This document shows, in pieces, positions 5,611 to 46,430 of a stretch of DNA of 64,000 nucleotides (position 1 is the first letter of the stretch; the number at the start of each line of letters is the position of its first letter). The position numbers and the translations under genes were made by a program. This DNA comes from Alligator mississippiensis (lineage: Eukaryota > Chordata > Crocodylia > Alligatoridae). The stretch is from positions 349,902,203-349,966,202 of the forward strand of contig NC_081824.1 in assembly GCF_030867095.1 (NCBI RefSeq), written 5' to 3'. The notes below the pieces were generated by a model. The model ran no database searches. It had not been told where the DNA came from and worked only from the letters and a program-made list of their open reading frames with translations.

Positions 5611-5744
5611 GAGGCACAAAGCCATGTGACTGGACAGCTGTGTATGTGGAGAGGGGAGCTCCTGCCTGCAGAGGAGGAGGTGGGCATGGGGGTGTGTAGG
5701 TGTGTGTGGGGTTTGTGGGTATATATGGGCTATGAGCCATAGGG

Positions 5745-6700
5745 CCGGCTAACTCTGTGCCTCCTCATGGGGCTTCCAGCACTCCAATGGGAAGCTGCAC
5801 ATGGAGGCAAGCAGAAGCCCACCTGGCCCGATGGCATGCAACTCCATACCTCTGTGTGAGGCTTCCTGCTGGAGTGCTAGAAACCCCAAATGGAGGGCCA
5901 GCCTGGCCCGATATAGTGCGTGGATCAGGAGCCGTGCATCATTGGGCCCTGCGGAAAGATGCACGTGGAGGCATGGAGTCACACGCCATCAGGCTGGGCA
6001 GGCTCCTGCTTGCCCCCACATGCAGCTTCCTGCTAGAGTATTGGAAACTGCAAGCAGAGGCACAGAGTCCACCCAACCTGTTGGCACATGGCTCCCAGTC
6101 CATGTGCCATCGGGCTGGGTCAGCTTGCTGTGTGCTTCCATGTGGGGCTTCCAGCACTTCAGTGGAAAGCTGCACATGGAGGCATGGAGCCTGCCTGAAC
6201 TGATGGCACACAGCTCCTGCCTGCAGGGCTGCAAACCCCATGTGCTGGCACAGAGCCAGCTCATTCTGGTGCAAAAGCACAGGCCAGCAGGCCAGGCATA
6301 AAGCCGCACATGGAGGGACAGAGTTGCATGACATTGGGCCAGGCAGGTTTCTGCTTGCCCCCACATACAGCTTCCCAATGGAGTGCTGGAAGTCCCACAC
6401 AGAGACACAGAGCTGGCCCATCCTGATGGCACACAACTCTGTGCCCCCATGTATGGCTTCCCACCCAGCCCAATGATGTGCGGCTCCCAGTCCATGCACC
6501 ACTGGGCCAGGCCAGCCCTCCACATGGGGCTTCCAGCACACCACCAGGAAGCTGCACATGGAGACATGGAGCCTGCCCACCCTGGTGGTGCACAGCTCCC
6601 ACCTGCAGTGCTGCAAGCCCCACATGCTCGTATGGCACCAGCCTGGTCTAGTCTGAAGGTATGCACCAATGGGCTGAGCCAGCTCTGTACCAGCATGTAC
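5745..6700. repeat. Degenerate tandem array, unit about 75-90 bp
   Basis: A motif of the form GGGGCTTCCAGCACT, then GGAAGCTGCACATGGAGG, then CAGAGCCTGCCC, then GATGGCACACAGCTCC recurs roughly every 75-100 bp, for example near 5769, 5858, 6022, 6143, 6366 and 6525. Copies differ by substitutions and indels. Because the unit lacks stops in several frames, long frames occur on both strands (up to ~235 codons), but they follow the repeat and are not genes. The array lies beside repeat copy A and may be part of the same element. Confidence 0.75.
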
Positions 6701-20160: not shown

Positions 20161-22891
20161 ATGGGGAATAAGCAGGATGAACTAGCGCTCCTGCTTGCAG
20201 AAAACACCTATGACTTAGTAGGGCTAACGGAAACCTGGTGGGATTCGTCCCATGACTGGGCGGTACATATTGAGGGTTATAGGCTGTACAGAAAGGACAG
20301 GGTGGGAAAGAAAGGGGGAGGGGTTGCGCTCTATGTCAATGAGCAATATACATCGACCCTCATCAAGATGGAATCGAAGGATGAAGAAGTAGAAGGATTG
20401 TGGGTTAGGTTACATGGGGAACAAGGAGAAAGGGATTTGGTGCTAGGGGTCTGCTACAGACTCCCACACCAAGGGGAAGAACTAGATTTGGGGCTCCTGA
20501 GGCAGCTCTCGGAGACCATAAAAGCTAAAGAGGCGGTAGTCATGGGGGACCTAAACTACCCAGACATCTGCTGGGAGACGCAGACGGCAAAGTCCCACCA
20601 TTCACGCAGGTTTCTAACCTGTGTACAGGACCTCCACCTGACACAGGAGGTACACGGTCCCACTAGAGGGAATGCCTTACTGGATCTGGTATTGGCAACA
20701 GGGGATGACATGGTAGGGGACCTACAGATCGGTGGCCATCTGGGGGACAGTGATCACCTAATAATAGAATTCTTCATAAGACGTCAAGTGGGTAAGGTAA
20801 CTAGTAGGGTGAAAGTGCTAGACTTTAGGAAAGCTGGTTTCAATGAACTCAGGCGATTAGTCAAGCACGCACTGCAGAGTAGGAGTTTTGAAGTGATGGG
20901 AACCCAAGTGGCTGTGCCTTAAGGAAACGATCCTTCGGGCACAAAGCGAGACGATCCCGATGCAAAGAAAAAGAGGAAAAGGGGCCAGGAGGCTTCCTTG
21001 GCTGACCAGAGAAATCCAGGGCAGCCTAAGGGCCAAAAGGGGAGCACATAAAAAGTGGAAACAGGGAGAGATCACCAAAGACAAATATACCTCCTCTGCT
21101 CGCACTTGTAGGGAGGCAGTTAGACGGGCCACAGCTACCATGGAGCTGAGAATGGGATCCCAAGTAAAGGACAACGAGAAATTGTTCTTTAGATATATAG
21201 GGAGTAAAAGGAAGGCCCAGGGAGGAATAGGACCCCTGCTAAATGGGCAGAAGCAATTGGTGACGGACAGGGGGGACAAGGCTGAACTCCTCAACGAGTT
21301 CTTTGCCTCAGTGTTCCTAAGAGACGGGCATGACAAGTCTCTCACTGGGGTTGTAGAGAGGCAGCAGCAAGGCGCCAGACTTCCATGCGTAGACCTTGAG
21401 ATGGTGCAGAGTCTCTTGGAAGAACTGGATGCCTTTAAGTCAGCAGGCCCGGATGAGCTCCATCCGAGGGTACTGAAGGCACTGGCTGACATCATTGCAC
21501 AGCCACTGGCGGGAATATTTGAACGCTCGTGGTGCACGGGCCAGGTCCCGGAGGACTGGAAAAGGGCCAATGTGGTCCCCATTTTCAAGAAGGGGAGGAA
21601 GGAGGACCCAGGCAACTATAGGCCAGTCAGTCTCACCTCCATCCTTGGCAAAGTCTTTGAAAAAATTATCAAGGCTCACATATGCGAGAGCCCAGCAGGA
21701 CAAATTATGCTGAGGGGAAACCAGCATGGGTTCGTAACAGGCAGATCGTGCCTGACCAATCTAGTCTCTTTTTATGACCAGGTTACGAAACGCCTGGACA
21801 CAGGAGGAGGGGTGGATGTCGTGTACTTAGACTTCAGGAAGGCCTTCGATATGGTATCCCACCCCATACCGGTGAACAAGTTAAGAGGCTGTGACTTGGA
21901 TGACTACACAGTCCGGTGGGTGGCGAATTGGCTAGATGGTCGCACCCAGAGAGTCGTGGTGGATGGGTCGGTTTCGACCTAGAAGGGTGTGGGCAGTGGG
22001 GTCCCGCAGGGCTCAGTCCTTGGACCGATACTCTTTAATGTCTTCATCAGCAACTTGGACGAGGGAGTGAAGTGTACTCTGTCCAAGTTTGCGGATGACA
22101 AAAAGCTATGGGGAGAAGTGGACACGCCGGAGGGCAGGGAACAGCTGCAGGCAGACCTGGATAGGTTGGACAAGTGGGCAGAAAACAACAGGATGCAGTT
22201 CAACAAGGAGAAATGCAAAGTGCTGCACCTAGGGAGGAAAAATGTCCAGCATACCTACTGGCTAGGAAATGACCTGCTGGGTGGCACGGAAGTGGAAAGG
22301 GATCTTGGAGTCCTAGCAGACTCCAAGATGAACATGAGTCATCAGTGTGACGAAGCCATCAGAAAAGCCAATGGCACTTTATCATGCATCAGCAGATGCA
22401 TGACGAACAGAACCAAGGAGGTGATACTTCCCCTCTATCGGGCGCTGGTCAGACTGCAGTTGGAGTACTGCGTGCAATTCTGGGCACTGCACTTCAAGAG
22501 GGATGCAGATAACCTGGAGAGGGTCCAGAGAAGGGCCACTCATATGGTCAAGGGCTTGCAGGCCAAGCCCTATGAGGAGAGACTAGGGCACCTGGACCTC
22601 TTCAGCCTCCGCAAGAGAAGGTTGAGATGCGACCTTGTGGCTGCCTATAAGTTCATCACAGGGGCACAGAAGGGAATTGGTGAGGTTTTATTCACCAAGG
22701 CGCCCCTGGGGGTTACAAGAAATAATGGCCATAAGCTAGCAGAGAGCAGATTTAGACTAGACATTAGGAAGAACTTCTTCACAGTTAGAGTGGCCAAGGT
22801 CTGGAATGGGCTCCCAAGGGAGGTGGTGCTCTCCCCTACCCTGGGGGTCTTCAAGAGGAGGTTGGATATGCATCTAGCTGGGGTCATCTAG
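20161..22891 (+). pseudogene. CR1 ORF2 (endonuclease/reverse transcriptase), two breaks
   Basis: ORF2 nicks target DNA and copies element RNA from the nick. The conserved frame is already open before the first Met, as LKCLYTNVRS then MGNKQDELALLL, back to about 20014 without an ATG. The AP-endonuclease domain runs from there to about 20800 (GLTETWWDSSHDW, KGGGVALYV, VVMGDLNYPDICWE, GNALLDLVLATGD, GDSDHLIIEF). RT blocks follow: DWKRANVVPIFKKGRKEDPGNYRPVSL, QHGFVTGRSCLTNL, VDVVYLDFRKAFDMVSH, SGVPQGSVLGPILFN and the catalytic FADD. The end is typical CR1 (WNGLPREVVLSPTLGVFKRRLDMHLAG). Two breaks: a one-base gain near 20916-20920, after GTQVA, and a TAG at about 21980, where STW is expected before KGVGSGVPQ. 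Otherwise open for roughly 900 codons, so the copy is young. Confidence 0.92.
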
Positions 22892-26814: not shown

Positions 26815-27028
26815 TAGTAAAAACCCCTTTTTAATGAAAAATTAAACTATGGGCCAAGAGAAGCTGAGGTTTATTCATATTCTGTGTTTTCCAGACCACT
26901 ATCCCTGAGCCAAGCTACAGTAGTGGTAACAGCTATCTAAGCAATATTAGATAGTTTTGAGCTGAAGTATTGACAACTGCTTGTTTGAATAATAATAATA
27001 TCTACTGAGTTGTATTTTAGTTTTAGAC

Positions 27029-27922
27029 TGTGCGGGCCGGGCCCCGATCCCGCCACCAAGTGCGAGTCGGGAGGGGCAATCAGCGGCCCGTCTTTTGTGC
27101 ACGCGGGCTGTGGCCAGCAGCCCGGGCACGCGGGGTCGGAGAAAACCGGTGGCGAGCTAGAATTAGTCACAAACGCGTAGTGGTTGATTGAAAAGATTGT
27201 TTACCTACACCCAAAGATGGTAGTGGTGTAGGCTGGACAGGTTTCCAGGTGCAGCTCCGCTTAAATCCTCGCTAGAGGACTACGACAAATTCGGTTGCTC
27301 CCACGGAGTTGTTTAGGCTCCGCAGGTTCGGTTCGGTTCCCTGGTCCCCCGGAGTTGTTTAGGCTCCGTGGGTTCGAAAATTGGGTTTACAGGAAAGGGA
27401 TACGTCTGGGATTGCGATCGGCGACGGGGAGAGGCTAGAAGCGAAAGCTCCGCGGGTTCGGTTATTAAGCTTGAGAGAGGCGCGTTGGGTCTGCAAGGGT
27501 CCGCAGCGCTTGGAGATCTTCACACAGCACGAAGTCTCCTCCTCCTGGCGAGTTCTATCTCTCTCCAGTTTTCTCTCTCTCCCTCTCCCTCTTCAACTTG
27601 GGCGGAAACTACCGAAGCCTTTTGTACAGCTAGCAAGCCAATAGCTAGCCGCCACGTGTGCCTACATTTGGAACTGGCCAATAATGTGGCGCGAATCCAA
27701 ATACAAATGGCGGGAACTCCTTTGCAACGTGCATTACCAGTATGCAAAAGAAATGCACCCTGCAAAGAAGCTGTAATTTGGTGGGAAATCCCCCGTTGCA
27801 CCAGAGTGCTCTCCTGCAGCAGAGAACTCTATCGTGCAAAGAAAGCTACAATCGGCGGGAAAATAATTTAGCAGTGCCGAAGCACACACAAACAAAAAAA
27901 CCCACAACTTTGGGTTGTGACA
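27029..27922 (-). repeat. 3' LTR of the gag-only element (894 bp)
   Basis: TG...CA ends on the - strand. It matches the other LTR along its full length. Its CT-rich run is shorter than in the other copy. Two GGAGTTGTTTAGGCTCCG blocks (27305-27325 and 27351-27371 region) form an internal direct repeat. Confidence 0.93.
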
Positions 27923-27935
27923 TCCCCCCTGCTGA
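27923..27935 (-). promoter_or_regulatory. Polypurine tract of the gag-only element
   Basis: On the - strand AGCAGGGGGGA stands directly before the TGTCACAACC start of the 3' LTR, the expected position for plus-strand DNA priming. Confidence 0.85.
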
Positions 27936-28300
27936 GAGCATAGCTAAATTATGCCATACTCTTCTAGCAATCTAGAATTTTGTCGTGAGTCGTCAAACGA
28001 GTAGATAAGCAAACAAACAAATAAACAAACATAAAATTCGCTGCCCTGGGATTAGGTTACATAACAATCAAGAAATAATAATCAACACAAACATATAATC
28101 TGATTCATAACAAAATTGCATGATCAGGGCTTCAGTGGGCGTCGTGGCGAGGTCATACGTCAGGCCCTCACTTCTCCCGGTGATGTCATCCCTCTCAGGG
28201 CTCCTCTTTGCCACGTGCTCTGAATTCCAGATCTGTAAACAAAAAACTCTCAAAAACAGATTAATGATCTTATTCAACAAACTTAAACAATTTTCACGGC

Positions 28301-30274
28301 TCAATTAGACAAAATCGTTGAAGATTCATCATCTGGTTCTTCTAAATAATGGAAACCTAACTCATAAGCTAATTGCCATTGGCCTGCGTCTCCTAAAATC
28401 CGAAGCTGCTGCTTGTTAAGTCTGGAACGCTGTAGGAGAAATCCAAACATGTATCGCTCCTCTAGGGTTCTCGGTGGCAGTGGTGGGAGATCGGATCCAC
28501 GTCGTCTGGTGTCTTGAGGTCTGGTCGGGTGTTGATAGTCCCGATCAAAAGACAATCTTGGCTCCATCAGGATACGCAGTCGTGGCAACTGACAAAGAAG
28601 ATTACTCATGGGTTGATTTACCATTGGACTGAGCAGAATCCGAAGGACGACGATATTCTTTTGCCCATAAATCTCGAGGCAACTGTCTAGACTGTGAGAG
28701 GTTAGTGGAACAGTTCCAGGATCTCGCAAGTGACGGTGAGGCCATGGTCTTATTCTCTGGAGTGATGTCAGTCCCAGCACACATGCTCTCGGGTTCCAAG
28801 CACAATACAAAACACCAATAATTGCTAGCATAAGATGCTCTGCGCCGGTATATTCTGGCCGTCCTGCATGCCACACGTGGGCCTTTTGACTAATCAGTCC
28901 TGCAACAAGCGCTGGCAGTGGAATAGGCCAGTGAGTATTACATGTTATCATGTCGATGTCAGGGACATGTCCTCTACTCCACAAAGCTTGTCCCACTAGG
29001 AAGCTTGCTTCTTCTTGGTTCAGCAGGTCGGATCCAAGTTCTATGACTAAACATCCTAACCATACAGCTAGAGTCTCTTCAGGTTGAATTCTTGATGCTC
29101 TACATAAATTCTGCAACTCAGTTCTGGTGCGAGCATAATAAGTAGTAGCAACTCGGTTAGTTGTTATTGTAGAATAAGCTGCTCCTTCGGGAGTTGATGT
29201 TGTAATAGGCTGAACTGCTGTTGCGGGGGTTACTGCTGCTGTTACTGCTTCACGCAGGAGGGGCGGATGCACTCCTCCGCTTGACTCTGTCCTTCGTCGG
29301 CAGGAAGGCGTGGTCGGTAGGGGCGTTGCTGCGTCACTAGGCGGAGTTGCCGGCGATGACGCTGTGTCGATGGGCGGAGTCGCTGACCGAACTCTCGCGG
29401 GTTCTTCAGAAGCTCCACCCTTCTTTTCCGGTTCTTCCACGCGGTCTCCCTTTTGCTCGGTGCCATCTTGGACCGGCGTTTCAGGCTCCTTTTTCTCAGC
29501 CGCTTCCTTGACCGCTCGGATTGCCATCTGCAGCTGGGTTTTCAAACTTAGGTTTTTTTGCATTAAATCCATCACAGTATGAAAAGTTGTACCACATTCT
29601 CCCTCCTTGTCGTACCGCAAGGCCACTCTTTCATCCGTGGCGCGTTCCTCTGTCTCCAGATCTTTGTGGAGCTCGGATGGAAGCTCGCGACCCCGTAATC
29701 TAGGCATTACCATACACGGGGAGAACCAGCCGATTGGCTCCGGTTCTTTACTCTCCCGAGCATATCGTAGGCATCGGGCACACTCCCGGGTGAAAGTCGG
29801 GTTTGTTTCGCCCCCCAGGTTGGGTCCGGCGAGGGACACAGTATCGAGGGGCCTAAACAGGACCCACTCATCTCTCATTATACACCCGAACGCCATGAGG
29901 AGCAAGTACACTTCCCTCTCTCTCGGGGCTCCATCTTTGGAGACTCCCTCTTCTCCCTTTAGCGACAGACGTCCACTCACAAATCTTTCACCCGTTCCAC
30001 CCACCTGGTGGTAAGCGATATGCACCTCCAGTTCCTCAAAGCTTTTCACTTGGCGTTGGTTATCATGCCAAGGGCAGTTCTGAACCAACTCTAGCTCTAG
30101 CGTGTTTTCTCCTGATCCCATCCTCGTCGCCATGTGCGGGCCGGGCCCCGATCCCGCCGCCAAGTGCGAGTCGGGAGGGGCGATCCGCGGCCCGTCTTTT
30201 GCGCACGCGGGCTGTGGCCAGAAGCCCGGGCACGCGGGGTCGGAGAAAACCGGTGGCGAGCTAGAATTAGTCAC
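28301..30274 (-). CDS. Gag-like protein, 657 codons, frame begins in the LTR
   Basis: One open frame fills most of the internal region. Residues 1-47 are encoded by the LTR end (MTNSSSPPVFSDPACPG). A second Met at residue 48 (MATRMGSGENT) straddles the LTR/primer-site junction. Residues 48-200 form a mixed globular region containing YLLLMAFGCIMRDEWVLF. About 203-262 is a charged, probably coiled-coil helix (MDLMQKNLSLKTQLQMAIRAV). About 262-375 is a low-complexity Glu/Lys then Pro/Thr/Ala linker. About 380-530 is helix-rich and may be the capsid (ETLAVWLGCLVIELGSDLL). The acidic tail ends DDESSTILSN. No CCHC zinc knuckle and no protease motif are seen. Gag identity rests on position after the primer site and on domain style, not on a diagnostic motif, so the family is open. 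Either Met could start translation. Confidence 0.7.
   Translation of the reverse strand: MTNSSSPPVFSDPACPGFWPQPACAKDGPRIAPPDSHLAAGSGPGPHMATRMGSGENTLELELVQNCPWHDNQRQVKSFEELEVHIAYHQVGGTGERFVSGRLSLKGEEGVSKDGAPREREVYLLLMAFGCIMRDEWVLFRPLDTVSLAGPNLGGETNPTFTRECARCLRYARESKEPEPIGWFSPCMVMPRLRGRELPSELHKDLETEERATDERVALRYDKEGECGTTFHTVMDLMQKNLSLKTQLQMAIRAVKEAAEKKEPETPVQDGTEQKGDRVEEPEKKGGASEEPARVRSATPPIDTASSPATPPSDAATPLPTTPSCRRRTESSGGVHPPLLREAVTAAVTPATAVQPITTSTPEGAAYSTITTNRVATTYYARTRTELQNLCRASRIQPEETLAVWLGCLVIELGSDLLNQEEASFLVGQALWSRGHVPDIDMITCNTHWPIPLPALVAGLISQKAHVWHAGRPEYTGAEHLMLAIIGVLYCAWNPRACVLGLTSLQRIRPWPHRHLRDPGTVPLTSHSLDSCLEIYGQKNIVVLRILLSPMVNQPMSNLLCQLPRLRILMEPRLSFDRDYQHPTRPQDTRRRGSDLPPLPPRTLEERYMFGFLLQRSRLNKQQLRILGDAGQWQLAYELGFHYLEEPDDESSTILSN
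30115..30132 (-). promoter_or_regulatory. Primer binding site for tRNA-Ser(GCU)
   Basis: Directly after the 5' LTR the - strand reads TGGCGACGAGGATGGGAT. Its reverse complement, ATCCCATCCTCGTCGCCA, is the 3' end of vertebrate tRNA-Ser(GCU) plus CCA, an 18-base match as I recall that tRNA. Serine-tRNA primed elements are known among class III-like endogenous retroviruses. The site is also coding: it lies within the gag-like frame. Confidence 0.85.
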
Positions 30275-30672
30275 AAACGCGTAGTGGTTGATTGAAAAGA
30301 TTGTTTACCTACACCCAAAGATGGTAGTGGTGTAGGCTGGACAGGTTTCCAGGTGCAGCTCCGCTTAAATCCTCGCTAGAGGACTACGACAAATTCGGTT
30401 GCTCCCACGGAGTTGTTTAGGCTCCGCAGGTTTGGTTCGGTTCCCTGGTCCCCCGGAGTTGTTTAGGCTCCGTGGGTTCGAAAATTGGGTTTACAGGAAA
30501 GGGATACGTCTGGGATTGCGATCGGCGACGGGGAGAGGCTAGAAGCGAAAGCTCCGCGGGTTCGGTTATTAAGCTTGAAAGAGGCGCGTTGGGTCTGCAA
30601 GGGTCCGCAGCACTTGGAGATCTTCACACAGCACGAAGTCTCCTCCTCCTGGCGAGTTCTATCTCTCTCCAG

Positions 30673-30711
<39 letters not shown>

Positions 30712-31049
30712 TCCCTCTCCGACTTGGGCGGAAACTACCCAAGCCTTTTGTATGGCTAGCAAGCCAATAGCTAGCCGCCACGTGTGCCTACATTTGGAAC
30801 TGGCCAACAATGTGGTGCGAATCCAAATACAAATGGCGGGAACTCCTTTGCAACGTGCATTACCAGTATGCAAAAGAAATGCACCCTGCAAAGAAGCTGT
30901 AATTTGGCGGGAAATCCCCCGTTGCACCAGAGTTCTCTCCCGCAGCAGAGAACTCTATCGTGCAAAGAAAGCTACAATCGGTGGGAAATTAATTTAGCAG
31001 TGCCGAAGCACACACAAACAAAAAACCCCCACAACTTTGGGTTGTGACA
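30133..31049 (-). repeat. 5' LTR of the gag-only element (917 bp)
   Basis: This is the upstream LTR in transcription order. It carries a (CT)n run near 30676-30710 on the + strand, expanded relative to the other LTR. No clear TATA box is picked out by eye. Confidence 0.93.
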
Positions 31050-31054
31050 TAGAC

Positions 31055-45458: not shown

Positions 45459-45902
45459 ATGGACGAGGCGTCGCTGCTGGACCTGCTGGAGTGCTCCGTG
45501 TGCCTGGAGCGGCTGGACACGACGGCCAAGGCGCTGCCCTGCCAGCACACCTTCTGCCGCCGCTGCCTCGAGAGCATCGTCAGCTCCCGCCACGAGCTGC
45601 GCTGCCCCGAGTGCCGCATCCTGGTGGGCTGCGGCGTGGACGAGCTGCCCGCCAACATCCTGCTGGTCCGCCTGCTGGACGGCATCCGCCAGCGGCCCCG
45701 GCCCGCCGCGGGGGCAGGGCCCGGCCCCGGCCCCGCCACCCCCGGCAGCGGCGGCAGTGGCGGAGGGAGCAGCTCGGCGGCGCCCCCCGCCTACCAGCCC
45801 GCGGCGGCCGCGGCCAGCGCCTCCCCCGCCGCGGTCGCCGCCGCCGCCGCCGCCAGCTTGCGGGAGCTCGCGGCCGCCAGCCGCAGCGCGCTGCTCGGAA
45901 AG
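45459..45902 (+). CDS. SH3RF3: SH3RF3 (POSH2) first coding exon: RING-type E3 ligase and JNK scaffold
   Basis: SH3RF3 is an E3 ubiquitin ligase and Rac1/PAK-binding scaffold for JNK signalling; the full protein has one RING and four SH3 domains. This exon gives 148 residues. The C3HC4 RING is complete: C12, C15, C28, H30, C33, C36, C49, C52, in [30 protein letters not shown] and [20 protein letters not shown]. The wording ([41 protein letters not shown]) matches SH3RF3 rather than SH3RF1 (ECPVCLERLDASAK). Residues 77-133 are a Gly/Pro/Ala/Ser linker, then SLRELA near the end as in SH3RF3. The exon ends in phase 0 after GK at a GTGGGT donor. The start at 45459 is the first Met before LLDLLECS; an in-frame stop lies 112 bases upstream. 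The remaining exons are outside the window. Confidence 0.94.
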
Positions 45903-45908
45903 GTGGGT
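45903..45908 (+). other. Splice donor of SH3RF3 coding exon 1
   Basis: AAG|GTGGGT fits the donor consensus and falls exactly where SH3RF3 homology stops. Reading on gives CpG-poor, CA-repeat-encoded sequence. Confidence 0.85.
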
Positions 45909-45964
45909 GCAGCCCGCCGGGACCCCCTGCCCTGCCCTGCCCTGCCCCGCCCCTTGTCCCTGCC

Positions 45965-46430
45965 CCAGCACACGCAGGGACACATGCACCCTGCACATGC
46001 CCCCCCCCACGCACACATGTGCGCCCTACGCACACAAGCACACTGCACACACACCCTCTACACACATGTGCACCTCACCCGCACACGCAACTGACACGCA
46101 CACGCACCTAGCGCACGCACACCCCTCCTACACATACACACATGTACCTGACACACATGCCGGTTGTGCATGCGCCTTGTACACACACACTCTGCCCACA
46201 CATGCCCTGTACGTGTACCCGATGCACACACGCACCCTACATGCACATGTGCTACACCCACCTACACCCCTACAAGCATCCTACATGCACACATTCATGT
46301 GTTCTGTATGCACGCATACATGCATCCTACACACACGTATGTGCATCCTACACCCCCCTTACATGCACCCTTGCACGCACATGTGCGCACACACACACGT
46401 GCATGCACATGCACACACACCACACACTCC
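45965..46430 (+). repeat. CA-rich irregular microsatellite
   Basis: ACACGCAC, CACACATG and TACACACA units run almost without break for ~460 bp just after the splice donor. In several frames this gives long His/Thr/Cys-rich open frames with no meaning. Confidence 0.9.

What the first reader, a model, noticed from the sequence alone, without database searches (positions are those of the whole stretch)
27024..31054. A complete-looking LTR element that carries only a gag-like gene
Two ~0.9 kb LTRs, an exact TAGAC duplication, a primer site and a polypurine tract are all present, but the 2.2 kb internal region holds one 657-codon gag-like frame and nothing else. Gag-only, pol-less elements are known in plants and are rarely described in reptiles. 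This suggests a mobile parasite that brought its own shell protein and borrowed RT and integrase.
Basis: partly seen in the sequence, partly recalled or inferred. Interest (0 to 1): 0.75.

Follow-up and report, generated by a model that had tools for sequence, protein, structure and literature searches.

The report
Gag-only LTR family in alligator
This is one copy of a dispersed family of retrovirus-like elements in an alligator genome that carry a gag-position gene but no polymerase genes, so they must be copied by enzymes from elsewhere, much like the well-known MaLR elements of mammals.

Summary
On the minus strand lie LTRs of 917 and 894 bp, an exact TAGAC duplication, a primer site matching tRNA-Ser(GCT), a polypurine tract, and 2,210 bp with one 610-codon frame and no pol or env.

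The window's own genome, by record length Alligator mississippiensis, answered late. Of the 20 best other copies fetched, 15 have complete LTR pairs. All 15 have interiors of 2,188-2,212 bp; their 5-bp duplications all differ, 14 exact and one off by a base. So this is a pol-less family, not a private deletion. Window-to-copy pN/pS is 0.46 in the gag frame, 0.69-0.78 in wrong frames and LTRs: source copies kept the protein working. All 20 other copies now have broken frames.

The frame matches no known Gag; "gag" is positional. Its ATG is formed at the LTR/primer-site junction. Six of 20 copies carry a foreign 156-nt cassette; in four it ends the frame early. No helper was found: searches for one did not complete. 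A reptile counterpart of ERVL-MaLR; interest 0.48.

The parts
27024..27028 (.). left target-site duplication TAGAC
   Evidence: exact copy at 31050-31054
27029..27922 (-). 3' LTR, 894 bp, TGT...ACA ends read on the minus strand
   Evidence: 40 scored genome matches of the 5' LTR at 91-100%
27923..27933 (-). polypurine tract AGCAGGGGGGA directly next to the 3' LTR
   Evidence: similar tract in sister copies
27923..28300 (-). 378-bp non-coding 3' part of the interior, shared with the sister copies; no pol or env trace, no unusual RNA fold
   Evidence: 6 of 6 peptides without Pfam match; z -0.11; present in 20 of 20 copies, partial in L016 and L024
28301..30133 (-). gag-position ORF, 610 codons plus stop; the start codon straddles the LTR/PBS junction
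   Evidence: relatives; sister copies and selection
30133..31049 (-). 5' LTR, 917 bp; its last 57 codons before the ATG are open in the gag frame
31050..31054 (.). right target-site duplication TAGAC

Best explanation
A member of a multicopy, non-autonomous LTR retroelement family of Alligator that carries only a Gag-position protein and moves in trans. Shown: the same LTR-PBS-gag-tail-PPT-LTR structure without pol in 16 complete copies (this one and 15 others) at independent sites; past purifying selection on the frame. Inferred: the transcript is translated from an ATG made at the LTR/PBS junction (or from the second in-frame ATG at codon 5); the Gag-like protein packages this RNA with Pol from an autonomous, probably class III/ERV4-like crocodilian ERV; RT is primed on tRNA-Ser(GCT); the borrowed integrase makes 5-bp duplications. 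This copy is about 31 My old and the 15 others about 42-76 My at the rough crocodilian rate of PMC4299795.
For: 15 of the 20 best other copies have complete LTR pairs; interior 2,188-2,212 bp in 15 of 15; 14 exact 5-bp duplications and one 4 of 5, all 15 different; LTR K2P 0.033-0.059. The other 5 of 20 are truncated but show gag and tail joined the same way. First looks found 1,483 gag and 5,081 LTR candidate places, of which 40 each were scored. Three further LTR places fetched are solo LTRs with exact 5-bp duplications, 3 of 3. pN/pS of the window against 20 copies: 0.27-0.66, pooled 0.462, against 0.76 in both wrong frames and 0.69-0.78 in three frames of the LTR (17 copies). The zero-spacer ACATGG junction is in 17 of 17 copies where it was printed with a complete 5' LTR end. 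TGT...ACA ends, 5-bp TSD and no zinc finger agree with class III/ERV4 (PMC4299795 section 8; PMC8278194 passages). 23 related protein models, 35-84% identical.
Against: No helper was identified; mobilisation in trans follows from the missing pol but was not observed. The 20 copies were chosen as best matches to a gag piece, so pol-bearing relatives with more diverged gag are not excluded. No sequence search or fold comparison confirmed a Gag or capsid. None of the 20 other copies has an unbroken 610-codon frame today. Six of 20 carry a cassette; in four of these the frame ends early at a shared stop, so a full-length protein may not be needed in every copy. The window is one side of every pN/pS comparison, so these are not independent, and wrong frames also lie below 1.
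Confidence: 0.85

Rival explanations
1. The frame is not a Gag but another element-encoded protein in the gag position; the family is still non-autonomous.
For: No match to any Gag model in Pfam, to PDB sequences or to folds. No late-domain motif and no zinc finger by pattern.
Against: It starts inside the PBS where gag lies and was under selection. A low-confidence layout of N-terminal strands, a long helix (177-214), a disordered linker and an all-helical C-terminal part. Zinc fingers are also absent from ERV3 and ERV4 Gag (PMC4299795). No other protein related at E<=1 in the searches made, which are capped and length-limited.
Confidence: 0.12
2. Private deletion: a full gag-pol-env provirus lost pol and env in this single copy.
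For: Chong et al. describe ERV4 groups with pol and env in crocodilians (PMC4299795 section 8).
Against: 15 of 15 other complete copies have the same interior length, at different sites with different duplications.
Confidence: 0.01
3. A host gene made from a retroviral gag (domesticated).
For: Unbroken frame in an old insertion; related models are annotated as Alligator genes.
Against: Both LTRs and the duplication are intact; dispersed family; only 0.83 stops are expected by chance since insertion, so the unbroken frame needs no host selection.
Confidence: 0.02

Closest known systems
ERVL-MaLR elements of placental mammals (THE1, MST, MLT, ORR1, MT)
   Same: Multicopy LTR elements without pol and env whose interior is related to a class III gag; one THE1D copy is predicted to keep a 464-aa frame (PMC11359688 passages).
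   Different: Mammalian and related to ERV-L gag; here no relation to any known gag was found. LTRs and frame here are longer (about 0.9 kb; 610 codons). PMC3915180 calls active mouse MaLRs purely non-coding inside (passages).
Crocodilian/turtle ERV4 class (Chong et al. 2014)
   Same: 5-bp TSD, Gag without zinc finger, crocodilian host (PMC4299795 section 8).
   Different: ERV4 is defined by pol phylogeny and carries pol and env; this family has neither, so it cannot be placed.
XtERV-S, class III ERV of Xenopus
   Same: tRNA-Ser primer site, TGT...ACA ends, no zinc finger; related copies have a 5-bp TSD (PMC8278194 passages).
   Different: 8 kb with gag, pol and env, a tRNA-Ser(AGA/TGA) primer and a 158-bp leader; here tRNA-Ser(GCT) and no leader.
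Plant TR-GAG elements and gag-only Athila families
   Same: LTRs plus only a Gag frame; in Athila, pol-less families with purifying selection on gag and recombination between families (PMC6022998; PMC2410132; passages).
   Different: Plant elements with recognisable Gag; no homology seen.

Membership tests
Gag-only non-autonomous LTR element (functional class) | two LTRs, TSD, PBS and PPT intact | tested here: met
Gag-only non-autonomous LTR element (functional class) | gag-position frame present, no pol or env | tested here: met
Gag-only non-autonomous LTR element (functional class) | many copies share the pol-less structure at independent sites | tested here: met
   15 of the 20 best other copies are complete; 15 of 15 interiors 2,188-2,212 bp; 15 different 5-bp duplications, 14 exact
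Gag-only non-autonomous LTR element (functional class) | the frame is a Gag (homology or capsid fold) | tested here: inconclusive
   no family or PDB match; models pLDDT 36 and 53, no fold match
Gag-only non-autonomous LTR element (functional class) | a helper supplies Pol | not tested
   17 requests with diverged relatives (P0018, P0008, P0019) to find pol-bearing kin did not complete
ERV4 (crocodilian/turtle) | 5-bp TSD | tested here: met
   Table 1 of PMC4299795
ERV4 (crocodilian/turtle) | no zinc finger in Gag | tested here: met
   no CX2CX4HX4C in the frame, no Pfam match
ERV4 (crocodilian/turtle) | pol clusters with ERV4 | not testable with these tools
   the element has no pol
ERV3/class III | TGT...ACA LTR ends | tested here: met
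   window; most sister copies too, with single-base exceptions in L018 and L025; criterion from PMC8278194
ERVL-MaLR (mammalian family itself) | interior related to ERV-L gag | tested here: inconclusive
   23 relatives found, 21 from Alligator and 2 of unnamed source; no ERV-L gag was compared directly
ERVL-MaLR (mammalian family itself) | placental-mammal host | tested here: not met
   21 of 21 relatives with a named source are Alligator
Plant TR-GAG | recognisable GAG domain of a Gypsy or Copia element | tested here: not met
   no Gag model in Pfam at E<=1

The most novel reading that the evidence does not exclude
Alligators host their own MaLR-like radiation: a diverse family of pol-less LTR elements with an orphan Gag whose start codon is created by the LTR/primer-site junction, so that the primer site is also the first coding stretch. 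The family exchanges Gag cassettes, one of which splits the frame in two, and moves on the Pol of a crocodilian class III/ERV4-like virus.
Probability: 0.5. Interest if true: 0.6.

Novelty: new member of a known kind. Interest (0 to 1): 0.48.

Why it matters
[quoted passage not shown] An independent counterpart in a reptile makes it testable whether keeping Gag while dropping Pol is a repeatable strategy of class III-like retroviruses, why selection keeps the Gag if Pol can be borrowed, and which Pol accepts it. The related 23 predicted proteins have no Pfam family.

Tried and rejected

Rejected: private deletion; chance ORF (0 of 2,000 simulations reached 609). Foamy-virus-like asymmetric end processing as the reason for the missing LTR/PBS spacer: PMC1180852 (passages) disputes the need for it, so no claim is made.

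Literature: listings (20 of 29 listed; 20 of 21; 20 of 81; 19 of 19; 15 of 42) show no paper whose title or abstract opening describes gag-only LTR elements in crocodilians. Repbase, Dfam and paper supplements were not searched, so the family may already be listed there. Abstract and outline only: PMC6669660, not used. Passages only, not used for a claim: PMC5753468, PMC11905727.
Full report
WHAT IS THERE. The element lies on the minus strand. LTRs 30133-31049 (5') and 27029-27922 (3') flank 2,210 bp (27923-30132), with an exact TAGAC on both sides. The LTRs read TGT...ACA. Over 894 aligned sites there are 15 transitions and 6 transversions (K2P 0.0239), plus gaps of 1 and 22 bp; 12 of the 21 substitutions touch a CpG. 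The element's CpG observed/expected is 0.82 against 0.28 for the window.

PRIMER SITE AND START. With no spacer, the last A of the LTR and the first TG of the primer site make the ATG of the 610-codon frame, and the primer site encodes MATRMG. The junction ACATGG is present in 17 of 17 sister copies where it was printed with a complete 5' LTR end. Of 23 related protein models, 12 carry MATRMG or a variant; the other 11 begin further downstream. That translation starts there is inferred.

THE FAMILY. A 600-nt piece of the frame, searched in the window's own genome (2.35 Gb), gave 1,483 first-look candidates; the 40 scored are 93-100% identical and lie on many chromosomes. One contig has the very length, 75,951,454, of a named Alligator mississippiensis record, and others come close, so the window is taken to be A. 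mississippiensis. I fetched the 20 best other copies (ranks 2-21 of 40) with about 10 kb each. Fifteen of 20 have both LTRs complete. Their interiors are 2,188-2,212 bp in 15 of 15. Fourteen have an exact 5-bp duplication and one (L014) matches at 4 of 5; all 15 differ from one another. LTR K2P is 0.0331-0.0590; the window's 0.0239 is the lowest seen. The remaining five are truncated or broken: L009 and L020 at the 5' side, L016, L024 and L028 at the 3' side. None of the 15 complete copies has room for pol between its LTRs. With the rate 3.9e-10 used by Chong et al. (PMC4299795, passage; they call it rough) this copy is about 31 My old and the others 42-76 My (my arithmetic).

LTRs. An LTR search gave 5,081 first-look candidates; the 40 scored are 91-100% identical. 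Eight of these form four pairs 3.1 kb apart, all among the copies above (window, L010, L012, L013); no pair is 5-15 kb apart. Only the best 40 are listed, so this is a weak test against longer elements with this LTR. Three unpaired places were fetched: 3 of 3 are solo LTRs with exact 5-bp duplications.

SELECTION. Window against 20 copies, leaving out gag nt 951-1149: pN/pS 0.27-0.66, pooled 0.462. Controls: the same sequence read in the two wrong frames gives 0.761 and 0.758; the LTR of 17 copies gives 0.69-0.78. So part of the divergence arose while the protein was under purifying selection in source copies; later neutral decay dilutes the signal. The window's unbroken frame needs no selection since insertion (0.83 stops expected by chance). 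None of the 20 other copies keeps it; the longest ATG frames are 525 and 466 codons (L013, L024).

TWO GAG TYPES. Six of 20 copies (L009, L010, L012, L014, L017, L018) carry, in place of the window's 169 nt at gag nt 966-1134, a 156-nt segment that is 93-100% identical among the six but 59-67% identical to the window, while the flanking gag is 92-96% identical. In four of the six the frame ends there at the same place (gag nt 1122-1123...MEFK[RC]D), like the models P0014 and, less closely, P0006; five of the six have a further frame of 149-216 codons for the C-terminal part starting at nt 1161-1168, and L017 one of 176 codons from nt 1288. In protein trees, P0014's N-terminal part is the window's nearest neighbour (85% identity, support 96/92; 16 of 24 rows), its tail only 30% identical, and 65% identical to that of P0006, which lies outside the window's N-terminal cluster. 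This is a discrete cassette exchanged between lineages, as in Athila (PMC2410132 passages). That split copies spread at all suggests that a full-length Gag need not be encoded in cis.

THE PROTEIN. No Pfam, NCBIfam, PHROGs or PDB match of weight; no CCHC zinc finger, no PPxY, PTAP or PSAP, no D[ST]G. Protein searches gave 8, 16 and 15 proteins (searches scored only the 7,990 and 7,993 candidates sharing most words), 23 distinct: 20 Alligator mississippiensis, 1 A. sinensis, 2 unnamed; 35-84% identical. No other named animal appeared, within those limits. Seventeen of 23 models have at most 4 residues aligned to the last 80 of the frame. Of the six that reach it, P0008 and P0016 end at the matching place and P0017 and P0019 within about 10 residues. 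Models are too weak to show a capsid. 'Gag' stays a positional name.

WHAT IT RESEMBLES. 5-bp duplications and no zinc finger fit ERV3/ERV4 (PMC4299795 section 8); TGT/ACA ends and a tRNA-Ser primer also occur in XtERV-S (PMC8278194 passages). Membership in ERV4 needs pol and cannot be tested. Functionally the nearest group is ERVL-MaLR (PMC11359688 passages).

OPEN. The helper. Seventeen requests with diverged relatives did not complete. Whether Repbase or Dfam already lists the family was not checked.

Noticed in passing
window 20161-22891 (+): Non-LTR retrotransposon with an endonuclease frame and a reverse transcriptase split over two frames (Pfam Exo_endo_phos, RVT_1); CR1-like from recall.
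   Followed up: partly
window 45459-46094 (+): Exon with a RING finger in a GC-rich stretch (Pfam zf-C3HC4 1.3e-09; best PDB match TRIM2); resembles the N-terminus of SH3RF proteins from recall. The element lies about 14 kb upstream, antisense.
   Followed up: partly
L009, L010, L012, L014, L017, L018 (gag nt 966-1134 of the window's frame): Discrete 156-nt foreign cassette in six of 20 copies that replaces part of the gag-position frame; in four it ends the frame at a shared stop, and the same tail appears in models P0006 and P0014.
   Followed up: partly
relatives P0019 and P0023: Two relatives come from short contigs (2,013 and 2,347 bp) of an unnamed source; their DNA could show what follows gag in diverged lineages.
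   Followed up: no
window 30676-30719: TC dinucleotide run about 22 bp longer in the 5' LTR than in the 3' LTR.
   Followed up: yes
window 5742-6628: Diverged direct and inverted repeats (63-77% identity) with long frames on both strands, probably a decayed satellite-like array.
   Followed up: no
L025: 717 bases of this stretch read N; where they lie was not looked at, and the copy was counted as complete because both LTRs, interior and duplication could be read.
   Followed up: no
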